Below, in pieces: positions 702 to 16,457 of a stretch of 64,000 bases of DNA. Each line of letters starts with the position of its first letter. The stretch's first letter is position 1. A program made the position numbers and the translations under genes. Under the pieces are notes generated by a model. It was given only the letters and a program-made list of their open reading frames with translations, did no database searches and was not told where the DNA came from. The stretch covers positions 186,001 to 250,000 of the forward strand of contig NZ_JAGGPH010000013.1 in the NCBI RefSeq assembly GCF_018613895.1, given 5' to 3'. The stretch comes from Curtobacterium sp. ISL-83 (GTDB lineage Bacteria > Actinomycetota > Actinomycetes > Actinomycetales > Microbacteriaceae).

Positions 702-2384
702 ATGACCGACGTCGTCGAGACCCCCGCACCCGCACGCACCACCACCGACGAGACCTGGTGGCGCCAGGCGAGCGTCTACCAGATCTACCCGCGGTCCTTC
801 GCGGACGCCAACGGTGACGGCATCGGGGACCTGCGAGGCATCACCGACCGCGTCCCGTACCTGGCGTCGCTCGGGGTCGAGGCAGTGTGGCTCAGCCCGT
901 TCTACCCGTCCGCCCTCGCCGACGGGGGCTACGACGTGGACGACTACCGCGACGTCGACCCCCGGCTCGGGACCCTCGCCGACTTCGACGCGATGGTCGC
1001 GGCCCTGCACGGTGCCGGGATGCGGGTGATCGTGGACATCGTGCCGAACCACACGAGTGACCGGCACGCGTGGTTCCGTGAGGCGCTGGCGTCGCCCGCG
1101 GGCTCCGCGGCCCGCGACCGGTACGTCTTCCGCGACGGCACCGGACCGGACCGCGCGGAGCCGCCCGCGGACTGGGTGTCGATCTTCGGCGGCCCTGCCT
1201 GGACCGCCGTCGGCGACGGGCAGTGGTACCTGCACAACTTCGCCAAGGAACAGCCCGACCTGAACTGGGCGAACCGCGAGGTCCGGGACGACTTCCTCAC
1301 CACGCTCCGCTTCTGGTCCGACCGCGGCGTCGACGGGTTCCGCATCGACGTCGCCCACGGTCTCGCCAAGGACCTGCCCGCCGAGCTCCCCGCCTGGGCC
1401 GAGGTCCTCGCGGCGCCGAAGGACGGTTCGCACATCCTCTGGGACCGCGACGACGTCCACGAGATCTACGCCGAGTGGCGGACGGTGTTCGACGAGTACA
1501 CGCCCGCCCGAACCGCGGTCGCCGAGGCCTGGGTCGCCGCCGACCGTCGCGCCCGGTACGCGAGTGCCGAGGGGCTCGGGCAGGCGTTCAACTTCGACCT
1601 GCTCGAGTCGGACTTCGACGCGGCGTCGTTCAAGCAGATCATCGAGTTCAACCTCGGGCTCGCCGAGCAGTCCGGGTCGTCGACCACGTGGGTGTTCTCG
1701 AACCACGACGTCGTCCGGCACGCCACGCGGTACGCGCTCCCGCCGCGAAGCGGGGACGCGGACCACGCACCCACGACCGACAAGCAGGGCGCGGCGTGGC
1801 TGTTGGCGGGCGGCTCGCAGGACGCCCTCGACCGCCCGCTCGGCCTGCGTCGCGCTCGGGCGGCCACCCTGCTCGAGCTCGCGCTGCCCGGGTCCGCGTA
1901 CCTGTACCAGGGCGAGGAACTGGGTCTCCACGAGGTCGGCGACATCCCCGACGCCGACCGCCAGGACCCCGCGTTCTTCCGGAACCCGGGCGTCGACGTC
2001 GGCCGCGACGGCTGCCGTGTGCCGCTCCCGTGGACCCGGACGGGCGAGAGCTTCGGGTTCGGCTCCGGCGGATCGCACCTGCCGCAGCCGGCGTGGTTCG
2101 CGGAGTCGAGCGTCAAGGCCGAGGAGGCCGACCCCGACTCGACGCTGCACCTGTACCGGACGGCTCTGGGCCTCCGCGGGCAGCTGCAGTCCGAGGAGCG
2201 GCTCGAGTGGATCGAGACGGGCCGCGACGACGTGCTCGCGTTCCGGCGGCCGAGCGGCTGGACGAGCGTGACGGTCTTCGGCGACGAGCCCTACGCGCTG
2301 CCGGCCGGCGAACTGCTGCTCGCCTCGGCACCGGTGGTGGACGGCGCGCTGGCCGGGGTGGGGACCGCCTGGTTGCGGTCCTGA
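702..2384 (+). CDS. GH13 alpha-glucosidase / oligo-1,6-glucosidase-like
   Basis: 560-residue cytoplasmic enzyme predicted to release glucose from the non-reducing end of short alpha-glucans, maltose or isomaltose-type sugars. It opens with WWRQASVYQIYPRSFADANGDG, typical of GH13 subfamilies 17, 23, 30 and 31. The four GH13 regions are present: DIVPNHTSD, GFRIDVAH (nucleophile D216), EAWV (acid/base E275) and FSNHDVVRH (D336). Length fits the family (about 540-600). There is no signal peptide. The ATG at 702 is preferred over upstream starts because AAGGA lies about 12 bases before it and the homologous domain begins soon after. It is divergent from the GH5-type gene, and an operator lies between them. 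Exact linkage specificity cannot be read. Confidence 0.88.
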   Translation: MTDVVETPAPARTTTDETWWRQASVYQIYPRSFADANGDGIGDLRGITDRVPYLASLGVEAVWLSPFYPSALADGGYDVDDYRDVDPRLGTLADFDAMVAALHGAGMRVIVDIVPNHTSDRHAWFREALASPAGSAARDRYVFRDGTGPDRAEPPADWVSIFGGPAWTAVGDGQWYLHNFAKEQPDLNWANREVRDDFLTTLRFWSDRGVDGFRIDVAHGLAKDLPAELPAWAEVLAAPKDGSHILWDRDDVHEIYAEWRTVFDEYTPARTAVAEAWVAADRRARYASAEGLGQAFNFDLLESDFDAASFKQIIEFNLGLAEQSGSSTTWVFSNHDVVRHATRYALPPRSGDADHAPTTDKQGAAWLLAGGSQDALDRPLGLRRARAATLLELALPGSAYLYQGEELGLHEVGDIPDADRQDPAFFRNPGVDVGRDGCRVPLPWTRTGESFGFGSGGSHLPQPAWFAESSVKAEEADPDSTLHLYRTALGLRGQLQSEERLEWIETGRDDVLAFRRPSGWTSVTVFGDEPYALPAGELLLASAPVVDGALAGVGTAWLRS

Positions 2385-2507
2385 CGGACGCACGATGCGG
2401 ACGGGAGGCGCGGTGCCGGCTGGCACCGTCCTCTCTCGCAGGCTCGGTCGGCGCGCCCGGCGCAACGCTTCGCGTTGCCGCTGAGCCGGGCGCGCCCGTC
2501 CGTCAGC
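2381..2507. terminator. Nested inverted-repeat terminator after the alpha-glucosidase
   Basis: CTGACGGACG at 2381-2390 (including the stop codon) pairs with CGTCCGTCAG at 2498-2507 and encloses two further hairpins: CGGTGCC/GGCACCG near 2410-2428, and GGCGCGCCCGG/CCGGGCGCGCC at 2450-2494 with inner GCAACGC/GCGTTGC arms. There is no T-run, as is usual in GC-rich actinobacteria. It contains the GGAGGCGCGGTGCC element seen at other gene ends. Confidence 0.65.
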
Positions 2508-2516
2508 CGGTGACGG

Positions 2517-2522
2517 TAGGTT
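2517..2522 (+). promoter_or_regulatory. -10 box TAGGTT, leaderless start
   Basis: TAGGTT lies six bases before the ATG at 2529 with no ribosome-binding sequence, so the transcript probably begins at the start codon. Confidence 0.55.
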
Positions 2523-2528
2523 CGGCGC

Positions 2529-3494
2529 ATGGCCGGAGCGAGCATCAGCGTGCAGGACTTCGTGATGCGGTTCGGCGAGCGGACGGTGGTGGACGGGCTG
2601 TCGTTCGACATCGCCCCCGGTGAGACCTTCGGGCTGCTCGGCAGCAACGGCTCCGGCAAGACCACGACCATCCGCGCCCTGCTCGGCATCACCACCCCGA
2701 CGGCCGGCACCCTGACGATCGACGGCCACCCGTACCGTCCGGCCGCGGGCGGCATCGGGTACCTGCCCGAGGAACGCGGGCTGTACCGCAAGGAATCCGT
2801 GATCGACGTCATGACGTACTTCGGCGTCCTGCGCGGGCTGCCCCGGGCGGCCGCCACGGGCTGGAGCATGGACTACCTGGCGCGGGTCGGGCTCGCGGAC
2901 CGGGCGAAGCTCCGGATCGACAAGCTGTCCGGCGGCCAGCAGCAGAAGGTGCAGCTCGGCATCACGATCATGGACCGCCCGCGCCTGCTGATCCTCGACG
3001 AGCCGACGAAGGGCCTGGACCCGGTGAACCGTCGGCTCCTGCTCGACCTGGTCGACGAGCGCAAGGCGGACGGCGCCACGGTCGTCCTGGTCACCCACCA
3101 CATGGACGAGGTCGAACGGCTCTGCGACCGGATCCTGCTGCTGAAGGACGGCGGGGCCGCCGCGTACGGCACCGTCGCCGAGGTGCAGGACGCCTTCGGC
3201 GGGGCCGTCGCCAAGGTCTCGCTCTCCGGAGCGGTGCCGCCGTCCGACCGCTACCGTCTCGCCCGGCACGAGGGCCACGTCGCCTACCTGGTCCCCCGGC
3301 CCGACGCCGCAGCCGACGGCTCGGACATCCTCGCCGAACTCGTCACCGCGGGTGTGCACGTCACCGGGTTCGAGATGCGCCGGATCCCGCTGGACGAGAT
3401 CTTCGTGCAGCTCTACGGCCACGACGCCGGCACCGACGCCCCGGTGCCGGCCCGGATGATGTCCAGCATGACCGGATCCGGGGCAGCCGCGTGA
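2529..3494 (+). CDS. ABC-2 exporter ATP-binding protein (NatA-like)
   Basis: 321-residue ATPase of an exporter. Walker A is GSNGSGKTT (residues about 38-46), signature LSGGQQQKV, Walker B LLILDEP followed by TKGLDP, and the switch histidine is in LVTHHMDE. The C-terminal 90 residues are the extension typical of the NatA/YhaQ group, which is described as exporting sodium ions or drugs. The stop codon overlaps the next gene's start (GTGA), so the permease is translationally coupled. The transported substrate cannot be deduced. The TetR-type regulator converging from the other side could control the pair, but nothing here proves it. Confidence 0.85.
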   Translation: MAGASISVQDFVMRFGERTVVDGLSFDIAPGETFGLLGSNGSGKTTTIRALLGITTPTAGTLTIDGHPYRPAAGGIGYLPEERGLYRKESVIDVMTYFGVLRGLPRAAATGWSMDYLARVGLADRAKLRIDKLSGGQQQKVQLGITIMDRPRLLILDEPTKGLDPVNRRLLLDLVDERKADGATVVLVTHHMDEVERLCDRILLLKDGGAAAYGTVAEVQDAFGGAVAKVSLSGAVPPSDRYRLARHEGHVAYLVPRPDAAADGSDILAELVTAGVHVTGFEMRRIPLDEIFVQLYGHDAGTDAPVPARMMSSMTGSGAAA

Positions 3495-4711
3495 GCCGCC
3501 TCGGCACGGTGGTGCGCTTCGAGTTCGTCCGCGCCGTCAAGAAGCCCGCGTTCTGGATCGGCACCCTCGCGCTGCCCGTGGTCATCGTGGTCGTGTCGTT
3601 GCTCGTCGGGATCGGCCAGTCCGCGGGCACCGACTCCGTCGTCTCGAGCGCCTCGGCGACCCGGACGCCGTTCCACTACGTCGACCGCTCCGGGCTGGTG
3701 TCCGCGTCGGTCGCGGCCAAGTGGGGCGGGTCGCCGTCCACCGATCCCGGCGCCGACCGGGCCGCCGTGCGCGCCGGCAAGTTGGACGCCTTCATCGAGT
3801 TCCCGGCCTCGCCCTCGAGCGCGTCGATCCGTGTCGACGCACGTGACCGAGGGCTCTTCGAGAACAACGGGTACTCGTCGCTGGCGCAGCGGGTCCTCGA
3901 GCAGAGCGTCGCCGAGCACGTGGACGACCCCACCGCGGTGCACCTGTTGCGCAACCCGCCGAACGCCGACGTCACCACGTACGCCGACGGTGCCGTCGCG
4001 CCCGGGTGGCTGTCCGTCCTGCCACCGTTCGTGTTCGTCGCGGCGTTCTTCGGGCTCGTCATCCTGCTCGCGGCCCGCATGGTGACCGTCGTCGTCGAGG
4101 AGAAGGAGAACCGCATCTCCGAGATGATCCTCACCACGGTGACGGCGGGCGACCTCATCCGCGGCAAGGTCATCGCCATGCTGCTGGTCGGCTTCGTGCA
4201 GGTCGGCATCTTCGTCGTGCCGGGGCTCGCGGGGTTCCTGGTCGCCCTGCCGCTCATCGCGTCGAAGCTCGGCGGCCTGGGGGTCGACCCGTGGCGCATG
4301 GTCGTCGGGGCGCTGCTGCTGATCGGCGGGGTGCTCCTGGCCTCCGGGCTGTTCGTCTCGGTCGGCGCGGCCGTGCCGTCGATCAAGGACGCCTCCGCCC
4401 TGCAGTCCGCGTCGATCTTCGCGCTGATCATCCCGCTCTACGCAGCGTTCTTCGTCGTGACGACGCCGTCGTCGCCCGTGACCGCGTTCTTCACGTACTT
4501 CCCGACGTTCACGCCGATCACCGCGATGGTCCGGAACGCGGTGGGCTCGTTGAGCGTGACGCAGTCCGTGCTCTGCATCGTCGAGGTGTTCGTCGTCGCC
4601 GGCTTGCTGCTGTGGTTCGCGGAGTACCTCTTTCGGCACTCCGTCGCGCAGTACGGGTCGAAGGTCACGCTGCGCCAGATCGCCGGGTGGCGTCGCGGTC
4701 GCGTCCGCTGA
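3491..4711 (+). CDS. ABC-2 exporter permease (NatB-like)
   Basis: 406-residue integral membrane partner of the preceding ATPase. It has one N-terminal membrane helix (about residues 22-45), then a large extracytoplasmic loop of about 140 residues, then a cluster of five or six helices from about residue 175 to the end. This is the layout of COG1668/ABC-2 subunits such as NatB. VEEKENRISEMI after the first C-terminal helix is the conserved cytoplasmic motif that contacts the ATPase. GTG start overlaps the ATPase stop by four bases. It probably exports sodium or a toxic compound; substrate unknown. Confidence 0.85.
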   Translation: MSRLGTVVRFEFVRAVKKPAFWIGTLALPVVIVVVSLLVGIGQSAGTDSVVSSASATRTPFHYVDRSGLVSASVAAKWGGSPSTDPGADRAAVRAGKLDAFIEFPASPSSASIRVDARDRGLFENNGYSSLAQRVLEQSVAEHVDDPTAVHLLRNPPNADVTTYADGAVAPGWLSVLPPFVFVAAFFGLVILLAARMVTVVVEEKENRISEMILTTVTAGDLIRGKVIAMLLVGFVQVGIFVVPGLAGFLVALPLIASKLGGLGVDPWRMVVGALLLIGGVLLASGLFVSVGAAVPSIKDASALQSASIFALIIPLYAAFFVVTTPSSPVTAFFTYFPTFTPITAMVRNAVGSLSVTQSVLCIVEVFVVAGLLLWFAEYLFRHSVAQYGSKVTLRQIAGWRRGRVR

Positions 4712-4732
4712 CCCACGGCCGGGCGGTCGCCC

Positions 4733-5365
4733 CTAGCTCGTGAGGACGACCTCGTCGAGGTCCCAGGCGGTCACGTCGGTCTGCCGCCACCCCTGCCGGA
4801 GCGTCCGAGCGGCGCGGTCGTACTCGACGATCACGTCGAGGTGCGGGCGCACGAGCATCTGGATCTGCAGGCCCTGGTACATCGCCGCGAGCTGCGTCGC
4901 CGCCTGGTACGCGGGGATCGAGGACTGCTCGACGGCGGCGTCCAGGTCCCGCTGCAGCCCCACGGTGAGCTGCGCGACGTAGTCCTCGAAGCGCTTCCGG
5001 AACAGCTCGGCGAAGCCGCCGTCGGAGGCCGCGATCGTGATGACACCGGCGAGGACCCGCACCAGGCCCGGGTCGGCCAGGTCCTCGGCCAGGGTCATCC
5101 GGACCTGGTCGATCGTGCACGTCGGCGGGGTGTTGCGTCGCGAGCCGCGCAGCTGGGCCCACCGGTCGTAGGTCACGAGCAGCAGGGCGTCCCACGTCGG
5201 GAACAGGCGCACCACGGTCTCGACCGGGACGCTGGCGACCTCGGCGACGACCGCGGCGTCGACGGATTCGAACGGGTGCAGGCGGTAGGCACGGATCGCT
5301 CCGCGGACGATGCGCTCGGCGAGGGACTGCTCATCCTCGAAGCGCTCGTCGTGCACGTGGTTCAT
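4733..5365 (-). CDS. TetR-family transcriptional regulator
   Basis: 210-residue one-component regulator. Residues about 15-60 form the TetR DNA-binding domain (RIVRGAIRAYRLHPFESVDAAVVAEVASVPVET and the helix with RLFPTWDALL). The rest is an all-helical ligand and dimer domain. It converges on the NatAB-like exporter with only 21 bases between the stop codons and lies downstream of pnuC on the same strand. A 24-bp dyad (TGTCGG...CCGACA) at 5419-5442 just before the start could be its own operator. The recognition helix is atypical, so family placement is good but target and ligand are unknown. Confidence 0.8.
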   Translation of the reverse strand: MNHVHDERFEDEQSLAERIVRGAIRAYRLHPFESVDAAVVAEVASVPVETVVRLFPTWDALLLVTYDRWAQLRGSRRNTPPTCTIDQVRMTLAEDLADPGLVRVLAGVITIAASDGGFAELFRKRFEDYVAQLTVGLQRDLDAAVEQSSIPAYQAATQLAAMYQGLQIQMLVRPHLDVIVEYDRAARTLRQGWRQTDVTAWDLDEVVLTS

Positions 5366-5418
5366 TCAGCCATCCCACAGGACGAGGACCCCTCGCGTCT
5401 GCTCCCCGGACTGGGGGT

Positions 5419-5442
5419 TGTCGGCTCCGGCCGGAACCGACA
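5419..5442. promoter_or_regulatory. 24-bp dyad: TetR operator or pnuC terminator
   Basis: TGTCGG and CCGACA flank a central CCGGCCGG, with one mismatched pair on each side. It lies between the pnuC stop and the tetR-like start on the same strand. Repressor operator and terminator are both compatible. Confidence 0.45.
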
Positions 5443-5446
5443 GGGG

Positions 5447-6112
5447 TCAGCCGACGACGACGGGCGCGACGGACGGCCGCACGCGCTGGTGCATCCAGAC
5501 GAAGAAGCCGGTCAGGGTGAACACCCCGTAGAACACGTACATGAACCCGGAGGCGTAGTAGCCGGCCGAGAACAGCAGCGGCACGCCGACCAGGTCCACC
5601 GCGACCCAGATCAGCCAGAACTCCACCCAGCCCTTCGCCATGCCCCAGGTGGCGAGCAGGGAGCCGACGAAGATCCACGCGTCGCTCCAGACCGGCTCGT
5701 ACGAACCGAGTGCGCGGAAGACCGGCGTCAGGACCGCAGTACCGCCCACCAGGGCGAGCACCAGCAGTCCGCGGGTCCGCCAGGAGGCCCAGTGCGGCTC
5801 GACGACGGTCGTCGCGTCGTCCGCGCGGTGCGTCCAGCGGTACCAGCCGTAGACGCTCACGATGATGAACATCACCTGGCGTCCCGCCTGGCCGAGCAGG
5901 TTGACCGGGTTCGGCGTGTCGAACAGGGCACCCATGAAGACCGTGAAGAGCAGGGCGTTGCCCACGATCCCGACCGGCCACGCCCACGCCTTCCGGCGCA
6001 TGCCGCCGAGTGCGCTGAGCAGGCCGAACACGTTGCCGATCACCTCGCGCCACAGCACCGTCTGGTCGCCGATGACGAGCTGCGCGTCGAACAACCACCG
6101 CACGATGCCCAT
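5447..6112 (-). CDS. pnuC: Nicotinamide riboside transporter PnuC
   Basis: 221-residue membrane protein of the PnuC family, which moves nicotinamide riboside (older name: nicotinamide mononucleotide transporter) across the inner membrane for NAD salvage. Seven hydrophobic helices are visible. Family hallmarks include the WREVIGNVFGLLSALGGMRRKAWAWPVGIVGN stretch (split across helices one and two), the WAVDLVGVPLLF segment and FVWMHQR near the end. The ATG at 6112 is chosen because GAGGAGGG lies 5-8 bases before it; longer frames add non-conserved residues. It is divergent from the ubiA-like gene with a 79-bp shared promoter region. No conserved riboswitch could be made out there. Confidence 0.9.
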   Translation of the reverse strand: MGIVRWLFDAQLVIGDQTVLWREVIGNVFGLLSALGGMRRKAWAWPVGIVGNALLFTVFMGALFDTPNPVNLLGQAGRQVMFIIVSVYGWYRWTHRADDATTVVEPHWASWRTRGLLVLALVGGTAVLTPVFRALGSYEPVWSDAWIFVGSLLATWGMAKGWVEFWLIWVAVDLVGVPLLFSAGYYASGFMYVFYGVFTLTGFFVWMHQRVRPSVAPVVVG

Positions 6113-6179
6113 GGGGCCCTCCTCGTTTCCGGTCGATGCAACCGTATGGGTCTCTCGGGCATTCCGACGAGGTGGTCCG

Positions 6180-6185
6180 TAAGGT
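6180..6185 (+). promoter_or_regulatory. -10 box TAAGGT, leaderless start
   Basis: TAAGGT ends six bases before the ATG at 6192, and no ribosome site lies between. Confidence 0.55.
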
Positions 6186-6191
6186 GACGTC

Positions 6192-7070
6192 ATGACCGGA
6201 CGGGTGCGACTGCTCCTCGCGTCGTCCCACCCGGGGCCGACCGTCGTGGTCACCGTGCTCGCGACCGTGATCGCAGCGGCCGTGGGGCACCCGGTGTGGC
6301 TGGTCGTCCTGGTCGCGCTCACGGTGTTCGCCGGCCAGCTGTCGATCGGACTGGCGAACGACTGGATCGACGCCGACCGCGACCGAGTGGTCGGTCGCTC
6401 GGACAAACCCGTGGCGCAGGGCCTGATCCCGGTGACGACCGTGCGGGCGGCGGCCTACGGCACTGCCGGCGTCGCCGTGCTGCTCTCGATCACCCTCGGG
6501 CCGGTCGCGGCCGTCGCACACCTCGTGCTCGTCGCGGCCGGCTGGGCCTACGACGCCGGACTCAAGCGCACGGCGTGGTCGGTGGCGCCGTTCGTCGTCG
6601 CCTTCGGGTTGTTGCCCGTCGTCGCGGTCTCGGCCGGGCCCGACCCGCAGCTGCCCGCGTGGTGGGCCGTGGCGACCGGGGCGGTGTTCGGCGTTGCCAT
6701 CCACTGCACGAACGTCCTGCCGGACCTGGTCGACGATGCCGCGACCGGTGTGCGCGGCTTCCCGCACCGGCTCGGTCTGCACCGGGCCGGGGTGCTCGCG
6801 TTCGTGTCGCTCGTCGTCGCGGCGGGACTCGTCCTCGGCGGCCAGCTCGTCGGCACGGCGGTCCACCCGGGGTCAGCGGTCGTCGGCGGGGTGCCGGTCG
6901 GTGTGGTGCTCGCCGTCGTCGGGGCGGTCGTCGTGCTCGTGCTCGCCGGGGTCGGCATCCGCCTCGTCCTGACCGGGCCGCCGACACGGACGCTCTTCCG
7001 GCTCGTCATCGCGTCATCGCTCGTGCTCGTGGTCGAACTCGGGTTCGCCGGAGCGCGACTCGTCGCCTGA
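6192..7070 (+). CDS. UbiA-family prenyltransferase
   Basis: 292-residue membrane enzyme of the UbiA superfamily, which joins a prenyl diphosphate chain to an aromatic or other acceptor. Eight or nine hydrophobic helices are visible. The first Asp-rich motif is NDWIDADRD (about residues 56-64) and the second is DLVDDAATG (about residues 177-185), the two magnesium-diphosphate sites of the family. Length is normal. The acceptor (menaquinone, heme O, lipid or carotenoid-type) cannot be fixed because no partner genes lie nearby. Bases 6848-6921 of this gene recur, slightly diverged, at 9410-9483, and a shorter piece recurs at 11383-11415. Confidence 0.85.
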   Translation: MTGRVRLLLASSHPGPTVVVTVLATVIAAAVGHPVWLVVLVALTVFAGQLSIGLANDWIDADRDRVVGRSDKPVAQGLIPVTTVRAAAYGTAGVAVLLSITLGPVAAVAHLVLVAAGWAYDAGLKRTAWSVAPFVVAFGLLPVVAVSAGPDPQLPAWWAVATGAVFGVAIHCTNVLPDLVDDAATGVRGFPHRLGLHRAGVLAFVSLVVAAGLVLGGQLVGTAVHPGSAVVGGVPVGVVLAVVGAVVVLVLAGVGIRLVLTGPPTRTLFRLVIASSLVLVVELGFAGARLVA

Positions 7071-7140
7071 CCGCGGCCGTGCGGTACTCGGTCCGCGGCT
7101 GCTCGCGGACGATCTCCTCCAGCCCATCCCACCAGCTCCC

Positions 7141-7159
7141 TCCGGCCTCGGTGGCCGGA
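7141..7159. terminator. Hairpin between convergent ubiA-like and SDR genes
   Basis: TCCGGCC and GGCCGGA arms with a five-base loop lie in the 109-base gap between the two stop codons. It could serve both directions. Otherwise the gap holds no recognisable gene. Confidence 0.45.
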
Positions 7160-7179
7160 CCAGATGCGTGATCGCCCAG

Positions 7180-8088
7180 TTACCGGGCGGCGGTGAGACC
7201 GAAGAACTGGTCGCTCGCGGCCCGGAGGCGCCGCTGCACGGCGCGGTCGTTCGTCGTGGCTGGGGTGGGGGTTTCCTCGTGGCGGACGAAGTAGCGGCCG
7301 GTGACGTCGTCCAGGGCGGGGTCGGTCGCGAGCCGCAGCGAGGCGGAGGCGCCCTGTTCCGGGGTGAGCATGGTTCGGCGCACGAGTCCGCCGAAGGGGC
7401 GCAGAACAGCGGGGATGAGATCGTCGATGATGTCTGTTGCGACGATCCCCGGGTGGACGGCGTTCACCGTGACGTCGCCTGCCAGGGACCGGGCCAGGTC
7501 GTAGCCGGCGGTGACGGTCAGCAGCTTCGCCCGCGCGTACGCCTCGAAGGGCACGAAGCGATCGACCGGGTTCAAGCGGGTGAGGTCGTCGAGGTCCTCT
7601 GGGTCGACGGTGGCGGGCTTGGGGGGTCCGACGAGTTTGAGTCGTCGGGTGTCGCGCAGCGTGTCGGAGGCCACGTTCACGACCCGTGCGTGGCCGGCAC
7701 GGAGCTGCGGTTCGAGGAGGACCGTGAGCCCGAAACCAGCGAGGTAGTCGATGGCGATGTGCCTCTCGACACCGTCAGCGGTGAGCTCGTGGTCCGGGAA
7801 GTGCGCGCCCGCGTTGTTGATGAGGACACTCACCGCCTGATGGCGTTCCGCGATGGTGCTGGCGGCTGCGATGATGCCGCGCCTGGTGGAGAGTTCGCCG
7901 GTGATGACCTCGACCGTCCCACGCGGCGCGGTGCGGCCGACCTGGTCGCGGAGTGCGGCCGCGCCCTGGGGGTTCCGGGCGATCGTGACGACGTGCATTC
8001 CTCGTTGGGCGAGGCCGAGCGCGATGGCGCTCCCCATCCCGCGGGTTGCTCCGGTGACGACGGCAACCCGGCGGGCGGAGTCGTTCAT
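7180..8088 (-). CDS. Short-chain dehydrogenase/reductase
   Basis: 302-residue classical/extended SDR enzyme with a Rossmann fold. The nucleotide site is TGATRGMGSA (about residues 13-22), NNAG follows at about 90-93, the catalytic Ser is in NVASDT and the active-site pair is in YARAK. An Arg after the first strand region (IARNP) suggests NADPH preference. It resembles retinol-dehydrogenase-like SDRs. Its ATG overlaps the stop of the upstream reductase-like gene (ATGA), so the two are one operon under the divergent TetR-type regulator. Substrate unknown. Local base composition looks less GC-rich than the sugar operons. Confidence 0.85.
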   Translation of the reverse strand: MNDSARRVAVVTGATRGMGSAIALGLAQRGMHVVTIARNPQGAAALRDQVGRTAPRGTVEVITGELSTRRGIIAAASTIAERHQAVSVLINNAGAHFPDHELTADGVERHIAIDYLAGFGLTVLLEPQLRAGHARVVNVASDTLRDTRRLKLVGPPKPATVDPEDLDDLTRLNPVDRFVPFEAYARAKLLTVTAGYDLARSLAGDVTVNAVHPGIVATDIIDDLIPAVLRPFGGLVRRTMLTPEQGASASLRLATDPALDDVTGRYFVRHEETPTPATTNDRAVQRRLRAASDQFFGLTAAR

Positions 8089-8723
8089 CGGTGGATGCGA
8101 GGGTAGCGGTGCACGAACTGCGCCTGTTCGGCTTCCTGGACGAGGAACGCGGCGAGGTCGGCGCGGCCGATCGAGTGCCAGAGCCGGATCGGGATCTCCT
8201 CGCCCACGACGTACTTCCCCGTCGCGGGGGTGTCTCTCAGGGCTGGCGGACGGACGATCGTCCAGTCCAGGCCAGAGTCGACGATCAGGGGTTCCATCGT
8301 CTCTTTGTCCTGCATCTTCTCACCCACCCCGGACCACACGGCGCGGCAGTACAGCGACCCGTCGTGCGATTCCAGGACCCCGTGCGCACTGACCACGATC
8401 AGCCGGGCGATCCCGTCTGCGACCATCGCGGGCACAGCGGTTCGGATGGCGTCCGTGCACACGGTTGTCGGCCCGCTTCCAGCCCCTCCCAGCGCACTGA
8501 TCACGATGTCGGCGCCCGCAAGGGCTGGAGCGAGGGCGTCCCCATCGTGCACATCACTCCAGATGCGTTCCTGGAGCCCGGCAGTGGGCGTGAACGAGCC
8601 CGCGCGGCGGACGACGGCGACCACGTCATGTCCCGCCTCCAGGGCATTGGCGACGACCAGGCGGCCCGTCGCGCCGGACGCCCCGAGGACGGCCACGGTC
8701 GACTTCGATACAATTTGTCTCAT
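8085..8723 (-). CDS. NmrA/BLVRB-like NAD(P)-binding reductase
   Basis: 212-residue Rossmann protein of the NmrA-like/flavin-reductase-like atypical SDR group. The dinucleotide motif is VLGASGATGR (about residues 10-19), followed by ADIVISALGG and the segment WTIVRPPAL. These proteins bind NAD(P)H and act as reductases or redox sensors. The ATG at 8723 fits best: TTGACT (8762-8757), an 18-base spacer and GATGCT (8736-8731) place transcription start at that codon; an in-frame ATG at 8735 lies inside the -10 box. It heads a two-gene operon with the SDR and is divergent from a TetR gene, with a dyad operator between them. Confidence 0.78.
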   Translation of the reverse strand: MRQIVSKSTVAVLGASGATGRLVVANALEAGHDVVAVVRRAGSFTPTAGLQERIWSDVHDGDALAPALAGADIVISALGGAGSGPTTVCTDAIRTAVPAMVADGIARLIVVSAHGVLESHDGSLYCRAVWSGVGEKMQDKETMEPLIVDSGLDWTIVRPPALRDTPATGKYVVGEEIPIRLWHSIGRADLAAFLVQEAEQAQFVHRYPRIHR

Positions 8724-11516: not shown

Positions 11517-12695
11517 TCAGGACCAGCGCATCGCGTAGAGCGAAGCCAGCCCACCGGCGGACGGGAGTGCCAGGGCGGACCGGAGCAGTGCCTCCCGGGC
11601 GGCCAACGCAACGCCCACTGCCGGGCGCCCGAGCGCCGTGTTCACCTCGGCCTGCGTTGCTGCGCGACGGGCCGCGCCCTGTCGCTGCCGGGCGTAGGCC
11701 GGCCACGGGCCGGACGCTCCGCTGCGGACCGCGTCGACGAGGATCGGGGCCAGCGCCGCGGCGTCGAGCCATCCCAGGTTCATGCCCTGCCCGCCGATCG
11801 GGCTGACCTCGTGCGCGGCGTCTCCGACCAGGACGACCCGACCGATGCCGACCCGCTCGGCGAACTGCCGCCGCGCACGGAACGCGCTGAGCATGGAGCA
11901 CGACCCGGGGTCGGGTTGCGCTCCGGTCCGGTCGCGCACGATCGCCGCGAGCTCGGATGCGTCAACGTGGTCGCCGTGCGCGCTGCGGTCGGGATGATCC
12001 GACATCCCGACCAGGGCGACGTACCGACGGCGTCCGCCCGGCAGCGGGAACGACTCCACCACGCCGGACGGCCCGACGTCGACCAGGGCCGACCCGCGGC
12101 GGGCGGCGTCCTCCGGGTCCGCGAAGTCGCCCATCGCGTAGCGCCCCGGGTACTCGCGACCGCCCCGGGCGATGCCGAGCAGGTCCCGCACGGTGCTTCG
12201 TGCCCCGTCCGCCCCGACGACGAACCGTGCGCGGAGGGCGATCGGAACGCCGGACGGGTCCGACCCGGCCGCGTCGACGCCGCCGTCCACGGCGGTGATG
12301 CCGGTGATGGTGACGCCGACGCGCAGCGCCGACGGGTTCAGGGCCCCGAGCCGAGCACGCAGCAGGGACTCGGTCCGGTGCTGGTCGAGCGTCGCCACGT
12401 AGGGGTGCGTCCGTGACGCGTGCGCGAACGACAGCGTGCCGAGGGTCCGGCCACGACTCGTCGCGACGCCCGTCCGCACGAGCGCTGCCTCGGCGAGCAC
12501 CGGCGCGAGCACGTCGATCGTCGCGAAGGCGTCGAGGGAGGGCGGGTGGATGCCGATCGCCCGAGACCCCTCGGGAGGGCCGCTCCGCCGCTCCCACACC
12601 AAGACGTCGACACCGGCCGACGCGAGGAGCGCGGCCAGGAACACCCCGACCGGGCCGCCGCCGACGACCAGCACGTCCGTGCGCTCTGAGGGCAT
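11517..12695 (-). CDS. FAD-dependent monooxygenase
   Basis: 392-residue class A flavoprotein hydroxylase (PHBH/UbiH fold). It starts with the ADP-binding motif VVGGGPVGVFLA (about residues 8-19) and the strand-ending acid in VWERR; the central DG motif is VVGADGARSTVR, and the second FAD motif is VVLVGDAAHEVSPIGGQGMNLGWLDA (about residues 275-300). Such enzymes hydroxylate aromatic or polyketide substrates, or inactivate antibiotics, using NAD(P)H and oxygen. No pathway genes adjoin it, so the substrate is unknown. The ATG at 12695 follows a TAGGCT -10 box by seven bases, giving a leaderless mRNA. Confidence 0.85.
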   Translation of the reverse strand: MPSERTDVLVVGGGPVGVFLAALLASAGVDVLVWERRSGPPEGSRAIGIHPPSLDAFATIDVLAPVLAEAALVRTGVATSRGRTLGTLSFAHASRTHPYVATLDQHRTESLLRARLGALNPSALRVGVTITGITAVDGGVDAAGSDPSGVPIALRARFVVGADGARSTVRDLLGIARGGREYPGRYAMGDFADPEDAARRGSALVDVGPSGVVESFPLPGGRRRYVALVGMSDHPDRSAHGDHVDASELAAIVRDRTGAQPDPGSCSMLSAFRARRQFAERVGIGRVVLVGDAAHEVSPIGGQGMNLGWLDAAALAPILVDAVRSGASGPWPAYARQRQGAARRAATQAEVNTALGRPAVGVALAAREALLRSALALPSAGGLASLYAMRWS

Positions 12696-12702
12696 GTCCT
12701 GG

Positions 12703-12708
12703 AGCCTA
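12703..12708 (-). promoter_or_regulatory. -10 box TAGGCT, leaderless start
   Basis: On the minus strand TAGGCT is seven bases before the ATG at 12695, which selects that start for the monooxygenase. Confidence 0.55.
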
Positions 12709-12725
12709 CGGAGGCGCTCCCGACG

Positions 12726-12842
12726 TGTCCGCAGGTCGGGGTACAACGGTGTCCGCACTTGGGTGGACTGAAAATGACCCCCGAAGTGGGTACATGCATA
12801 TGCATGTTTCAACTTGTCCGCCATTTGGGGGACAGCTATCGT
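12726..12842. promoter_or_regulatory. Control region of the SipW locus
   Basis: The 329-base gap before 13025 holds no gene. It contains a perfect 16-bp palindrome ACATGCATATGCATGT at 12792-12807 and three direct copies of TGTCCGC followed by a G-rich tail at 12726, 12750 and 12815; the last two match at most of 18 bases. A good promoter, TTGTCC (12814-12819), 17-base spacer, TATCGT (12837-12842), lies right after the palindrome and would give a leader of about 175 bases. An activator or repressor probably binds here; which one is unknown. Confidence 0.5.
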
Positions 12843-13024
12843 CGTCAGCAGAGCGAGTCCAGCCCGCACGAGCAGCTTTCCTGTTCCGGAGCCCGGCGAC
12901 CGTTCCCGGCAAAGGTCAGCCGCGACCTCCGGGAACCCGAGGTCGATGACACCGTCCCGTCGCACGCCAGCCCGAATCGTGTGCGCCGGCCACAGCGCTG
13001 CCACAGCGCAGAACGGACCCCCTC

Positions 13025-13579
13025 GTGCACAAGATCCTCACCGGAACCATCGCCGGAGCAGCCGGCGTCGCCCTCCTGCTCGGCGGAGCCGGCACCTTCG
13101 CGCTCTGGAACGCCAACGCCTCGAGCGCTGCGTCCTCGGTCGCCTCCGGCACCCTCACCCTCAGCGCGAACAACGACGGCGCATGGACCGACATCACGAA
13201 CGGTCACTCGACGCCCATCAACCCCTCGACGGCCCTCATGGTCCCGGGCAACACGTACCAGGTCACGCAGACGCTCACGATCGGCGCCACCGGGCAGGAC
13301 CTCAAGGCCAACCTGACCTACGCGAACCAGAGCATCACCGGCGATGCCGCGCTGCTCGCCGCGACGACGAAGACGCTCGCCGTGACGTCGACCAGCGCCT
13401 CGGTCGTGCAGTCCCCCTCGACCGCCAACACCTTCGTCGTGTCGCCGTCGTCGGCGACCTCGACGGTCAAGGTCGTCTTCACGATCGCCCTGCCGTCCTC
13501 CGCCACCACGGGCCAGGGCGGATCGATCAACGTCGGCGCCCTCGCGTTCACGCTGACGCAGACCGCGATCGGTTCCTGA
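13025..13579 (+). CDS. Exported protein with alternate (SipW-type) signal peptide, TasA-like
   Basis: 184-residue secreted protein. Residues 5-22 form a hydrophobic core, followed by GTFALWNANASSAASSVASG (about residues 23-42), the alternate signal-peptide pattern cleaved by SipW-type signal peptidases. The mature part is Thr/Ser/Ala-rich, predicted beta-strands, without Cys, and ends with GALAFTLTQTAIGS. In Bacillus, proteins processed this way (TasA, camelysin) form biofilm fibres; the similarity here is in signal and overall layout only. It is first of a four-gene operon ending in the peptidase. The GTG start lacks a strong ribosome site, and the AT-richer leader holds a palindrome. Confidence 0.78.
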   Translation: MHKILTGTIAGAAGVALLLGGAGTFALWNANASSAASSVASGTLTLSANNDGAWTDITNGHSTPINPSTALMVPGNTYQVTQTLTIGATGQDLKANLTYANQSITGDAALLAATTKTLAVTSTSASVVQSPSTANTFVVSPSSATSTVKVVFTIALPSSATTGQGGSINVGALAFTLTQTAIGS

Positions 13580-13686
13580 TCGCGCGCCGGGCCGCGGAGG
13601 GTCCCTGATCCACCGTCCGCGACCCGGCAGCAGCAGAACCAGCAGCGGAACCAGCACGAGCACGTCGATCGACCGAGGGGACGGAC

Positions 13687-14262
13687 ATGCGGACACCACG
13701 CAGCACGGCGCGACACCGCGCCGTGCGCCGGGTCCGCTGGTTCTGGCCCACCGTCCTGACCCTGGTCGTCGCCGTGGCCACCACACTCCTCGGCACCAGC
13801 GGCACGTACGCGCTGTGGAACGGTTCCGCGAGCACGAGCGGGTCGACCGTCCGGTCCGGCACCGCGGCGATCGCCGTCGGACCACTGTCCGCGATGAACA
13901 CGTCGGCGCTCGGGCCGGGGACCTCGGCCACCGGGACCTTCACGGTCCGGAACACGGGCACCATCCCCCTGACGATGCGCGTCACGACGACCGCCACGAC
14001 GGCGTCCAACCCGGCCGTGCTCGGTGAGCTGACCCTCCGCCTGTCGGTCGTGGCGTCCGCGGCCGACTGCACCGCGAGCAGCGGTGGCGCGAGCGGTCGA
14101 CTCGCGAGCTTCGACACCGGGAGCAGCTCGTACACCCTCCCCGCCGGCGCGGGCGGGACGGGCTGCGCCGTGCTCACGCTCGACACCGACGCCCCGCAGT
14201 CCGTCGCGGGTGCCGTGGCGAACTTCACGCTCACCGTGACCGGGACGCAGGTGACCCCGTGA
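13687..14262 (+). CDS. Exported protein with SipW-type signal peptide (second of locus)
   Basis: 191-residue secreted protein. A basic N-terminus (RTPRSTARHRAVRRVRW) leads into a membrane segment and then GTYALWNGSASTSG (about residues 39-52), the alternate cleavage pattern. The mature region has an FTVRNTGTIPLTMRVTTTA segment, like the CARDB/Ig-like beta-sandwich found in TasA-type proteins, and two Cys. ATG at 13687 follows GAGGGGAC. The 107-base gap after the first gene contains no clear terminator, so co-transcription is likely; its stop overlaps the next start (GTGA). Possible subunit or cap of a surface fibre; unproven. Confidence 0.75.
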   Translation: MRTPRSTARHRAVRRVRWFWPTVLTLVVAVATTLLGTSGTYALWNGSASTSGSTVRSGTAAIAVGPLSAMNTSALGPGTSATGTFTVRNTGTIPLTMRVTTTATTASNPAVLGELTLRLSVVASAADCTASSGGASGRLASFDTGSSSYTLPAGAGGTGCAVLTLDTDAPQSVAGAVANFTLTVTGTQVTP

Positions 14263-15140
14263 CCCGCCGACTGCGCGTGCTGCTCGCCGTCCTCCTCACG
14301 GTCGTCTTCGTGGGTGCGGGCTCGTCGGCCGCCTGGGCGCTCTGGAGCACGACCGGGACCGTCGCCTCCAGCGTGTCCGTCGGCACGGTGTCCGCGTCGA
14401 TCGGCAACACGACCGCCGCGACCACGACGTTCTCGTCCTCGGTCCCGACCGTGACCGCCCCGCTGACCCTGTCGAACCCGGGCACGCTCGGCGGGACGAC
14501 CTCGACGAGCGTCGCCGTCACCGGCGGGAGCTCCGCGCTGGCCGCCGCGATCACCGTCGTCGCATGGCCGGTTGCGAGCGCCACGGCGTGCACGACCACG
14601 ACGACCACCGGCGCGGGAGCGGTCTCCGGCACCTGGGCCTCCCTGCCGAGCCTGCGCTCCACACTCTCCCCCGGCGCCGCCGCCGTGTGGTGCGTCCGCA
14701 GCACACCGACGTCATCGGCACCTGCCTCGAGCACCACCACCATCACGCTGTCGCTCGCGGTCACGACCGGGTCGTGGACGAGCACCACGGTCCGGAGCAC
14801 CTTCTCGATGGCGACCGCGGCGGCGGCACCGGCAGCGACCTGCACCGACCACAGCGGCAACTACGTCGACATCGCCTGGCCCACGTCGTCCCGCCCCGCC
14901 GACACCTGGTACGCCGCGTACGTCAACGGCACGATGGTCGGTGACCGGCAACAGTCCTACTACGGCCGCGTCACCCTCGCACCGAGCCAGATCCCGGCCA
15001 CGGTCGCGTCGAGCGGGACCATCACCGTCGTCGTGAAGGTGCTCGACAGCGCGGGCAACCCGACCAGCACCGTCGCGGGCACGACGCCCGTCACCCTCTT
15101 CACCCAGAACAACGGGCCCGCCATCCGGTGCGGCGCATGA
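14259..15140 (+). CDS. Exported protein with SipW-type signal peptide (third, larger)
   Basis: 293-residue secreted protein. Signal peptide at residues 5-27 ends in SSAAWALWSTTGTVASS, again the ALW alternate cleavage pattern. Two regions follow: a Ser/Thr/Ala-rich beta-sandwich-like part (about 35-185) and a C-terminal domain from about 190 with CTDHSGNYVDIAWP, WYAAYVNGT and a final C in IRCGA, which could close a disulfide. The C-terminal domain is absent from the two upstream proteins and might face the outside or bind a partner. It overlaps both neighbours (GTGA before, ATGA after), indicating coupled translation with the peptidase. Confidence 0.75.
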   Translation: MTRRLRVLLAVLLTVVFVGAGSSAAWALWSTTGTVASSVSVGTVSASIGNTTAATTTFSSSVPTVTAPLTLSNPGTLGGTTSTSVAVTGGSSALAAAITVVAWPVASATACTTTTTTGAGAVSGTWASLPSLRSTLSPGAAAVWCVRSTPTSSAPASSTTTITLSLAVTTGSWTSTTVRSTFSMATAAAAPAATCTDHSGNYVDIAWPTSSRPADTWYAAYVNGTMVGDRQQSYYGRVTLAPSQIPATVASSGTITVVVKVLDSAGNPTSTVAGTTPVTLFTQNNGPAIRCGA

Positions 15141-15802
15141 CCCGGGCACACCGAGCGGAGACCGCCACGAACCCGACCCGCACCACGCGGCGGCCACGCC
15201 CCGAACGCACCGGGTGGCGGGCGGTCGTGTCCGCGATCACGCTCGGGATCAGCACCGGATTGCTCCTGCTGGTCAGCGCACTCGCGGTCGTGCTCATCGT
15301 CATCCCGAAGGCGACCGGGTCGATGCCGCTCACCGTCCTGACGCAGTCCATGGAGCCGTCGCTGCCCCCGGGGACCCTGGTGGTCGTCCGACCGACGCCG
15401 GTGGACCAGATCCGGGTCGGGGACGTCGTCACCTACCAGATCGTGTCCGGCCAGCCGGCCGTCATCAGCCACCGGGTCGTCTCGATCGCGTCGTCCACGA
15501 CGGGAGCGCGGACCTTCGTGCTCAAGGGTGACAACAACGCCCACGCCGACCCCGCGCCGGTCACCGCCGCGCAGATCCGAGGGGTCGTCTGGTACAGCCT
15601 GCCGGACCTCGGGTACGTCAACCAGCTGGTGAACGGCTCCCGGAGCTGGCTCATCCCGACGGTGGCCGGTGTGCTGCTGACGTACGGCGGGGTGATGATC
15701 ACGGTCGGGCTCGTCGGGGCGGCGCGGAAGCGGAAGCGGGACCGCCGGGGCGGCGGTCGGCGTGGAGGCGCGCACATCGCCGACGACGCACGGTCGGCCT
15801 GA
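15137..15802 (+). CDS. sipW: SipW-type (archaeal/ER-type) signal peptidase I
   Basis: 221-residue membrane peptidase that removes the alternate signal peptides of the three upstream proteins. One N-terminal helix (about residues 31-55) anchors it and a second lies near residues 170-192. The catalytic boxes are QSMEPSLPPG (nucleophile S71), SHRVV (H112) and KGDNNAHADP (D132, D138): Ser/His with Asp instead of the Ser/Lys dyad of ordinary bacterial LepB, as known for SipW and the eukaryotic ER type. The ATG at 15137 overlaps the preceding stop (ATGA) and is preferred to one at 15128. The C-terminal tail is Arg/Lys-rich and cytoplasmic. Confidence 0.88.
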   Translation: MTRAHRAETATNPTRTTRRPRPERTGWRAVVSAITLGISTGLLLLVSALAVVLIVIPKATGSMPLTVLTQSMEPSLPPGTLVVVRPTPVDQIRVGDVVTYQIVSGQPAVISHRVVSIASSTTGARTFVLKGDNNAHADPAPVTAAQIRGVVWYSLPDLGYVNQLVNGSRSWLIPTVAGVLLTYGGVMITVGLVGAARKRKRDRRGGGRRGGAHIADDARSA

Positions 15803-15850
15803 GGGGTCCAGACGTCGCGCGTCGGGGCGCGGCCGCGGTGTCGGGGGATC

Positions 15851-15918
15851 CTGTCTCGGCGGGTCCCGTCTCGGCGGGTCCCGTCTCGGCGGGTCCCGTC
15901 TCGGCGGGTCCCGTCTAG
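15851..15918. repeat. 15-bp tandem repeat, about 4.5 copies
   Basis: CCGTCTCGGCGGGTC is repeated at 15851, 15866, 15881 and 15896 (first copy starts CTG), and a fifth partial copy at 15911 has changed to CCGTCTAGGCT, creating the -10 box of the next gene. Copy number could vary by slippage and alter spacing of upstream promoter elements. Confidence 0.85.
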
Positions 15919-15921
15919 GCT
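15916..15921 (+). promoter_or_regulatory. -10 box TAGGCT, leaderless start
   Basis: TAGGCT arises in the last degenerate copy of the 15-bp repeat and lies eight bases before the GTG at 15930. Confidence 0.5.
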
Positions 15922-15929
15922 CTGGGGAC

Positions 15930-16457
15930 GTGATGGACGGTGTGCAGCGAGCGCGCGAGCTGCTCGACGACGCAGCAGGACGCCTCCGTGCCGCCGGCGT
16001 CCGTGACGAGGCCCTCGCCGAGTACGTCGAACCACGATCGGTGCTCGGCATCCGCCGCGAGCCGACCATGCGGTCACTCGGCCGGGTCTGGCGGATCGGA
16101 GCCCTGCTCGTCGGCGCGTCCGACGACAGCGTCGGCTGCGTCTGGGCGACGGGCTCGATCACGCGTGTCACCGACCCCGGGCGATCGCAGTTCCAGTCCG
16201 TCTCCGCCGAGGTCCGCCGCGCGTACCGTGCGGCCGCCGCGAAGGGACACTTCGCGGACGGCGACACCGTCAACCACGGCGCGACGCCGATCCCGCTCGA
16301 CGACACGCTCGTCGGCTCCCCCGGCGCGCTCTTCGTCGAGGACGGCGTCCCCCTCGTCCGGTGGTCCGCGACCGCCGGTGCCGCCGTGCCGCTCGCCGAC
16401 TACCTCCGCGACCGGGTCGGGCTCCTCGTCAACCCGCCGCGCGGCGCGACCGACTGA
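15930..16457 (+). CDS. Conserved hypothetical protein
   Basis: 175-residue soluble protein that I do not recognise. It has no signal peptide or membrane helix. The N-terminal half is helical (VQRARELLDDAAGRLRAAGVRDEALAEYV) and the middle has an RIGALLVGASDDSVGCVWATGSITRV strand pair, then a charged helix and PLADYLRDRVGLLVNPP at the end. Adjacent GTG (15930) and ATG (15933) could both start it; the -10 spacing favours GTG. Its final codons lie in a 24-bp direct repeat that continues past the stop. It stands alone between the SipW locus and the photolyase. Confidence 0.65.
   Translation: MMDGVQRARELLDDAAGRLRAAGVRDEALAEYVEPRSVLGIRREPTMRSLGRVWRIGALLVGASDDSVGCVWATGSITRVTDPGRSQFQSVSAEVRRAYRAAAAKGHFADGDTVNHGATPIPLDDTLVGSPGALFVEDGVPLVRWSATAGAAVPLADYLRDRVGLLVNPPRGATD

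What the first reader, a model, noticed from the sequence alone, without database searches (positions are those of the whole stretch)
13025..15802. SipW locus with three different exported proteins
Three successive proteins carry the ALW alternate signal pattern and are followed by a Ser/His-type SipW peptidase, three of four genes joined by 4-base overlaps. The third exported protein has an extra Cys-containing C-terminal domain. This resembles TasA-TapA-SipW fibre systems of Bacillus, but the proteins themselves show no clear homology and nothing is described for them here. It may be a plant-surface or biofilm fibre system.
Basis: partly seen in the sequence, partly recalled or inferred. Interest (0 to 1): 0.72.

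Follow-up and report, generated by a model that had tools for sequence, protein, structure and literature searches.

The report
Fibre operon with swappable adhesive end
A plant- and soil-associated bacterium carries a small operon that probably builds a protein thread on its surface, with one abundant building block, one helper subunit and one end-piece whose sticking domain is swapped between relatives, all trimmed by a dedicated enzyme.

Summary
In detail: three proteins with SipW-type (ALW) signal peptides precede a Ser/His S26B peptidase in a Curtobacterium-like genome; the last three genes are joined by 4-base overlaps. "No clear homology" is wrong. Protein 1 is NCBIfam TIGR04089. Protein 2 is a distant TasA relative: TasA is the top PDB hit of its profile (E 0.0014). 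Protein 3's N-domain is homologous to protein 2 and shares its Cys pair. TIGR04089 occurs in 84 of 199 sampled genomes of the family and 5 of 296 across the phylum.

New here: (i) the protein 3 C-terminus is swapped between relatives (ricin-B lectin, fn3, LamG or a Cys-bridged Ig-like domain), as expected of a terminal adhesin; (ii) a covarying hairpin between genes 1 and 2, where pilus operons set subunit ratio; (iii) a membrane-tailed TasA-like protein in 25 of 80 relatives, absent here. Best reading: a TasA-like donor-strand fibre with protein 1 as major subunit, 2 as minor subunit, 3 as adhesive end. Fold evidence for protein 1 is supportive, not decisive (TasA fibre Z 4.8). Fibre formation, polarity and plant role are untested.

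The parts
13025..13579 (+). Gene 1 (p1): proposed major fibre subunit, 184 aa; signal region 13025-13105, mature part from 13106 (cleavage before Trp28, inferred)
   Evidence: TIGR04089 133.6 bits (cut-off 60), TIGR04088 19.7 bits (cut-off 19); AF2 pLDDT 92.7 beta-sandwich, mature residues 1-15 without regular structure; the most conserved of the four genes in Curtobacterium
13586..13628 (+). Intercistronic RNA hairpin after gene 1, loop region GGUCCCUGAUCC; proposed to set the ratio of p1 to p2-p3-SipW
   Evidence: 14-bp stem, 91.4% of cells paired, 10 of 14 pairs with changes on both sides in 15 sequences; an uninterrupted stem of 10 or more at this place in 42 of 58 loci against 147 of 580 control windows (the window's own stem is interrupted, longest run 8). 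The window's own folding energy is not remarkable (z -0.81 for the whole gap; z -2.0 for the first 90 nt)
13687..14262 (+). Gene 2 (p2): proposed minor subunit or adaptor, 191 aa; mature part from 13816 (inferred); Cys pair invariant in 64 relatives
   Evidence: PF12389 26.4 bits (gathering 22.5) on the precursor; profile of 64 mature p2: top PDB hits TasA 5of1 E 0.0014 and 8aur E 0.0018; Cys pair
14259..15140 (+). Gene 3 (p3): proposed terminal adhesin, 293 aa; mature N-domain about 14343-14822, C-terminal Ig/fn3-like domain with a Cys pair about 14823-15137
   Evidence: N-domain homologous to p2 (hhalign 98.6%, E 1.2e-15); two beta domains, AF2 pLDDT 91.4; C-domain swapped among relatives
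15137..15802 (+). Gene 4 (p4): SipW-like S26B signal peptidase, 221 aa from ATG 15137 (GTG 15128 also possible)
   Evidence: TIGR02228 77.5 bits (cut-off 51.85); SipW equivalog NF046067 62.8, below its 190; Ser71/His112 invariant in 18 of 18 aligned

Best explanation
The locus encodes a TasA-like extracellular fibre and its own maturation peptidase. Sec exports p1, p2 and p3 with alternate signal peptides. The SipW-like enzyme p4 cuts before the conserved Trp and so frees a short N-terminal strand. As in TasA, that strand would complete the beta-sandwich of the next subunit. p1 is the major subunit; a hairpin after its gene keeps its dose above that of the coupled p2-p3-p4 genes. p2 is a minor subunit. 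p3 uses a p2-like domain to join the fibre end and carries an exchangeable binding domain (here Ig/fn3-like, in relatives often a ricin-type lectin) that touches the target. Shown: genes, families, homologies, predicted folds, domain swapping, covarying hairpin. Inferred: cleavage site, polymerisation, subunit order, stoichiometry, adhesion and its target.
For: p1 is TIGR04089. The mature p2 profile finds TasA (E 0.0014, 0.0018) then AbpX (0.035, 0.046) first in the PDB, aligned over TasA's SGTLDLSA, PG and NNG segments. p2 and the p3 N-domain are homologous and share a Cys pair. p1 and p2 align weakly (66.6%, E 5.4e-5). p1's AF2 model is good, with a free N-terminal segment; the TasA fibre chain has the highest TMq (0.44) of the 50 listed Foldseek rows, and VIA aligns 136 of 157 residues, model 1-156 to chain 29-235. 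The TasA donor strand is residues 28-38 (PMC9674648, passages). p1 has ASG at residues 40-42, where TasA has it too if the F before it is the paper's F39. p3 C-termini: Ricin_B_lectin in 22, fn3 in 23, LamG in 1 of 66. Hairpin covariation. Gene 1 is set apart (median 91 nt, 62 loci) while p2 and p3 lie at most 4 nt apart or overlap in 48 of 57. p1 has the lowest and p3 the highest pN/pS. By models TIGR04088 and TIGR04089 the alternate signal is found nowhere else in this genome above cut-off; p3 itself escapes these models, so a p3-like substrate elsewhere would be missed.
Against: The p1 fold match to TasA is weak by the tools' own standards (Foldseek E 0.21, no row with E <= 0.001; Z 4.8, tied with many Ig-like rows), and the p1 profile finds no TasA in the PDB. 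p1 and p3 profiles do not align beyond 22 columns. Mature window p2 alone does not match PF12389, and only 7 of 64 mature p2 do, so part of the 26-bit precursor hit comes from the signal region. p3 against TasA was seen only through p2; TasA is not among the 50 listed rows of either p3 fold search. No multimer could be modelled. In 16 of 58 loci, the window among them, no uninterrupted stem of 10 was found; seven of these have a short gap of 41-49 nt, five of them Curtobacterium (L073, L075, L077, L087, L095). Within Curtobacterium the p3 C-domain does not evolve faster than its N-domain. No anchor protein is seen in the window.
Confidence: 0.6

Rival explanations
1. The three proteins are separate secreted Ig-like matrix or cell-wall proteins that share a signal peptide type and a peptidase but do not co-polymerise; p3 is a soluble or wall-bound lectin-like adhesin.
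For: The fold matches of p1 and p3 are generic Ig-like folds; the p1 link to TasA is weak and p1 and p3 profiles do not align.
Against: Gene order kept in 52 of 80 loci; p2-p3 N-domain homology; TasA as top p2 hit; free mature N-terminus in both models; the p1-p2 hairpin fits unequal dosing of one assembly.
Confidence: 0.22
2. p3 is the TapA-like initiator or basal unit rather than the distal tip: a complete Ig domain that only donates its N-terminal strand and starts the fibre at the cell, its C-terminal domain holding wall glycans instead of a foreign surface.
For: TapA has a complete Ig fold and an unstructured donating N-terminus (PMC10151520, passages); the p3 model has an Ig-like domain after a free N-terminus; the window has no other anchor, while 25 of 80 relatives have a membrane-tailed TasA-like protein.
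Against: Swapping among unrelated lectin, fn3 and LamG domains fits varied external targets better than one cell wall. Seven loci have both the membrane-tailed gene and a long p3 of 361-402 mature residues (L115, L116, L117, L119, L125, L134, L143), so p3 need not be the anchor there.
Confidence: 0.2
3. The hairpin is an ordinary end-of-gene terminator or mRNA-stability stem with no role specific to fibre stoichiometry.
For: GC-rich stems are common here (147 of 580 random windows); the loop 12-mer occurs elsewhere too (27 of 39 copies in 40 genus genomes), and 17 of the 29 genomes with a TIGR04089 gene over the cut-off have no exact loop copy within 100 bases after it.
Against: 10 of 14 pairs change on both sides; no terminator-like site found by the consensus scan; 12 of 39 loop copies lie within 100 bases after a TIGR04089 gene, all on its strand.
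Confidence: 0.35

Closest known systems
tapA-sipW-tasA of Bacillus subtilis (TasA donor-strand fibre)
   Same: SipW-type peptidase beside its substrates; alternate signal peptide; beta-sandwich major subunit with a short segment free at the mature N-terminus; p2 family hits TasA; an accessory gene overlaps sipW (tapA-sipW overlap in PMC10151520, passages)
   Different: Three exported proteins instead of two, gene order 1-2-3-sipW, p3 with a swapped C-terminal domain, a hairpin after the major subunit gene, an Actinomycetota host
Bacillus cereus sipW-tasA, calY and capP region (PMC13082335, passages)
   Same: Several SipW-processed proteins, more than one TasA homologue, an accessory polymerisation protein with a variable C-terminal region
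   Different: CapP is described with a DUF4047 N-domain and QKKV/AEE repeats; p3 has a p2-like Ig N-domain and globular C-terminal domains
Archaeal bundling pili, AbpX
   Same: Weak sequence match of the p2 profile to AbpX chains 9rhp and 9sj2 (E 0.035 and 0.046)
   Different: Only a partial, weak match; no comparison of locus or fibre was made here
NCBIfam TIGR04089 'alternate-type signal peptide domain-containing protein' (exp_by_SipW_III)
   Same: p1 is a full-length member, 133.6 bits
   Different: The tool output names the signal type only; no fold, partners or function are given
Chaperone-usher pili with a two-domain tip adhesin (analogy only)
   Same: Pilin-like domain plus binding domain at the fibre end (recalled); donor-strand pilins appear among p1 fold rows
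   Different: No usher or chaperone gene among the four; different peptidase-driven maturation; no sequence link seen

Membership tests
TIGR04089 exp_by_SipW_III | Whole-protein score over the curated 60 bits | tested here: met
   p1 133.6 bits over 1-179 of 179; p2 12 bits and p3 no match, so only p1 is a member
TasA/camelysin (Pfam PF12389 Peptidase_M73) | Score over the gathering threshold of 22.5 bits | tested here: inconclusive
   p2 precursor 26.4 bits, p1 16.6, p3 none; mature window p2 no match, 7 of 64 mature p2 match at E <= 0.01; 0 of 83 mature p1 match
TasA/camelysin (Pfam PF12389 Peptidase_M73) | Detectable homology of the mature domain to TasA | tested here: met
   For p2 only: TasA chains are the top two PDB hits of the A4 profile, E 0.0014 and 0.0018, modest. 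For p1: no hit. For p3: only through p2
TasA/camelysin (Pfam PF12389 Peptidase_M73) | TasA-like jelly-roll fold | tested here: inconclusive
   p1 model against 8aur_A: TMq 0.44, E 0.21; Z 4.8, rmsd 4.4, 136 aligned. p3 model: not listed. p2 not modelled
Donor-strand fibre system | N-terminal strand of one subunit completes the next | not testable with these tools
   Only single chains could be modelled; mature residues 1-15 of p1 have no regular structure in the model
SipW / S26B signal peptidase | Ser/His dyad of the ER/archaeal/SipW type (class definition recalled) | tested here: met
   S71 and H112 invariant in 18 of 18 aligned; TIGR02228 77.5 over 51.85
SipW equivalog of Bacillus (NF046067) | Score over the curated 190 bits | tested here: not met
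   62.8 bits: SipW-like, not the Bacillus equivalog
TapA | Sequence homology to TapA | not tested
   No direct comparison with TapA was run; functional analogy only

The most novel reading that the evidence does not exclude
An actinobacterial donor-strand fibre, matured by SipW rather than by sortase or an usher, that ends in a modular adhesin whose lectin-like domain is swapped as on chaperone-usher tips. Its major-to-minor subunit ratio is set by a covarying RNA hairpin with a conserved loop between the first two genes.
Probability: 0.4. Interest if true: 0.78.

Novelty: new variant of a known kind. Interest (0 to 1): 0.6.

Why it matters
TasA-type fibres are known as matrix scaffolds. An exchangeable adhesive end-piece, a dosing hairpin and an optional membrane-tailed anchor would make this a complete fibre system in a family of plant, soil, ice and marine Actinomycetota whose SipW fibres I did not find described. 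It makes testable whether SipW systems, like chaperone-usher pili, evolve new surface targets by swapping one domain. It also gives widely annotated 'alternate-type signal peptide' proteins and their neighbours concrete candidate roles.

Tried and rejected
Direct PDB sequence search with p1 alone gave only chance-level rows, and the p1 family profile likewise. Family scans of window p3 gave nothing; it was placed only through p2 and through relatives. NCBIfam scans of the 64 mature p2 gave 5 choice_anch_D and 1 TIGR04089 match, not informative. The promoter and terminator consensus scan of 12600-16100 found nothing; Rfam at gathering scores and the tRNA scan of the window found nothing. A possible extra SipW substrate at G000:C22:231983 (17.4 bits, below cut-off) reads as a c-type cytochrome with two CxxCH motifs and was dropped. 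The second own-genome copy of the hairpin loop (C8:87330) was not pursued beyond reading 600 bases of its locus. Folding energy of the window hairpin alone is unremarkable, so the claim rests on covariation. The 15 hairpin sequences were chosen because they hold the loop with at most 2 substitutions (16 of 62 gaps), so loop conservation is partly by selection; L092 was dropped as a spurious loop match before the count. The stem was drawn by me on members of the set. One measure, further pair types, does not exceed the shuffles (17 against 17.6). TasA was not among the 50 rows listed for the p3 model; that absence is not read as a different fold. Ten literature searches (one library of open papers only) listed no paper that I recognised as describing an actinobacterial SipW/TasA locus; for these I saw listings only. 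Three papers were seen as passages.
Full report
What is there. The window is bases 186001-250000 of contig 5 of a 3.6-Mb genome. By p4, its nearest named relatives are Curtobacterium species. Genes p1 (13025-13579), p2 (13687-14262), p3 (14259-15140) and p4 (15137-15802) lie on one strand. p2/p3 and p3/p4 overlap by 4 bases; p1 and p2 are 107 bases apart. No other place in the genome passes the TIGR04089 or PF12389 cut-off. Three further S26-like places exist in it.

Families. p1 is TIGR04089, 133.6 bits against 60. p2 reaches PF12389 (camelysin/TasA) at 26.4 against 22.5 on the precursor. With the signal region removed, the window protein no longer matches and only 7 of 64 do, so that hit alone would be unsafe. 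The profile of 64 mature p2 proteins nevertheless finds TasA as its first two PDB hits (E 0.0014 and 0.0018), then archaeal AbpX (0.035 and 0.046). p3 matches nothing by itself, but its N-domain is homologous to p2 (98.6%, E 1.2e-15). Two Cys are invariant in each family and are aligned with each other. p1 and p2 align weakly (66.6%, E 5.4e-5) and p1 and p3 do not beyond 22 columns. p4 is an S26B peptidase of the SipW class with an invariant Ser and His in 18 of 18 aligned sequences, the window and 17 of the 20 relatives' loci, but not the Bacillus SipW equivalog (62.8 of 190 bits).

Distribution. TIGR04089 is in 84 of 199 sampled genomes of the family, in 30 of 40 of the genus (29 over the cut-off) and in 5 of 296 across the phylum; only 2 of these 5 pass the cut-off, the window's own genome and one of its family. 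p3, by a single-sequence search, is in 49 of 199. In these 80 loci the strict order p1-p2-p3-p4 holds in 52. The other 28 lack a strict profile match for a gene, or were missed by my signal-peptide rule, or have another order, or are cut by a contig end. Hosts include Curtobacterium, Clavibacter, Frigoribacterium, Cryobacterium, Salinibacterium, Herbiconiux and Leifsonia, with outliers in Arthrobacter and Aeromicrobium. That most of these belong to Microbacteriaceae is recalled.

Structure. p1 from 83 mature sequences gives a model with pLDDT 92.7 and pTM 0.85: a beta-sandwich preceded by 15 residues without regular structure. In TasA fibres the strand passed to the next subunit is residues 28-38, near the start of the mature protein (PMC9674648, passages). 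The mature p1 start is Trp28 (inferred), and p1 residues 40-48 (ASGTLTLSA) resemble the TasA segment ASGTLDLSA seen; this is by eye. Foldseek gives no significant match; among the 50 listed rows the TasA fibre chain has the highest TMq, 0.44 (E 0.21). VIA gives it Z 4.8 over 136 residues, model 1-156 to chain 29-235, tied with many Ig-like folds. I call this supportive, not decisive. The p3 model (pLDDT 91.4, pTM 0.68, 52 sequences) has two beta domains after a free N-terminus. Foldseek's best rows for it are generic multi-Ig proteins, FimC-type chaperones and others (51 rows with E <= 0.001, best 2.2e-5); its N-domain resembles Ig-like domains of integrins and Caf1M-type chaperones (Z up to 9.5), a common fold.

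The end-piece. p3 keeps its N-domain and changes its C-terminus. Of 18 p3 proteins extracted from unnamed relatives I scanned the ten longest. Eight carry a ricin-type lectin above the gathering score, and three carry fn3 above it, two of these together with ricin; one has neither. Of 66 p3 proteins from the named loci and the window, 22 match Ricin_B_lectin, 23 fn3, 1 LamG and 1 PKD at E <= 0.001. The window's own C-domain matches no Pfam family; in the family profile, which includes fn3-bearing members, its columns match fn3 chains. A few p3 are short, such as L085 and L113. A conserved joining domain with exchanged binding domains is what a fibre-end adhesin would look like; this is inference.

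An optional fourth exported protein. In 25 of 80 loci a gene between p3 and p4 encodes an ordinary-looking signal peptide, a domain with a loosely defined proline-box motif (in 24 of the 25) and a C-terminal hydrophobic stretch with a basic tail, in several with a TG motif before it. It may anchor the fibre. It is absent in the window, so how a fibre would be held here is open.

The hairpin. The p1-p2 gap (median 91 nt, 62 loci) contrasts with p2-p3 (median -4; 48 of 57 at most 4 nt); start codons were picked by a ribosome-site score in the script. Of the 62 gaps, 58 were long enough to fold. In the first 90 nt after p1, 42 of 58 hold an uninterrupted stem of 10 or more, against 147 of 580 same-length random windows from the same loci (Fisher p 1.7e-12, treating related loci as independent). 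The window is not among the 42: its stem is interrupted, longest run 8. By dinucleotide shuffling, 32 of 58 reach z <= -2. In 15 related sequences chosen for the loop, a 14-bp stem is paired in 91.4% of cells. Ten pairs change on both sides and the covariation score is 0.535 against 0.206 shuffled and 0.03-0.14 slid; further pair types do not exceed the shuffles. Relatedness inflates such counts, but the slid controls keep relatedness. Of 39 exact loop copies in 40 genus genomes, 12 lie within 100 bases after a TIGR04089 gene, on its strand, in 12 of the 29 genomes that have such a gene over the cut-off; the other 27 copies lie elsewhere (my count from both tables). Pilus operons often have such a stem after the major subunit gene (recalled), which suggests a dosing role.

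Evolution. Among 19 Curtobacterium sequences p1 is most conserved (median identity 0.83, pN/pS 0.32); p2 and p3 have the same identity (0.64) but p3 the higher pN/pS (0.58 against 0.47). This fits a buried structural subunit and an exposed end-piece. The p3 N- and C-domains do not differ from each other (0.593 and 0.590), which is against faster change of the binding domain within the genus. Downstream neighbours are shared with Curtobacterium loci (21 and 19 of 80 for two genes), the two upstream genes tested with none of the 80.

Verdict. This is a new, more elaborate variant of the SipW/TasA kind. Membership of p1 in the TasA family is not proven and that of p2 is distant.

Noticed in passing
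L087 and L140 (same assembly, Curtobacterium flaccumfaciens LMG 3645): Two different SipW loci in one genome, one with the short window-type p3 and one with a longer p3 (391 mature residues); several genus genomes have two or three TIGR04089 matches.
   Followed up: no
L085:5411-5905, L113:4297-4761, L045 (p3 ORFs): p3 ORFs that end after or near the N-domain, without the full C-terminal domain; a stop inside the match was also reported in the G071 copy.
   Followed up: no
Gap between p3 and p4 in 25 loci among L093-L149: Secreted, membrane-tailed protein with a TasA-like proline-box motif and sometimes a TG motif before the tail; looks like a fibre anchor.
   Followed up: partly
L150 (Aeromicrobium ginsengisoli), about 1700-8500: Repeated units of exported protein plus peptidase, five peptidase-profile hits in one locus, in a different arrangement from the window.
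   Followed up: no
window 15860-15919: Four tandem copies of a 15-base unit (three exact, one near copy) just downstream of the operon, seen by eye.
   Followed up: no
L124:2239-5058: A p3 homologue of 940 mature residues (MAG Naasia); the single LamG match and the single PKD match are taken to be this one, from its length only.
   Followed up: no
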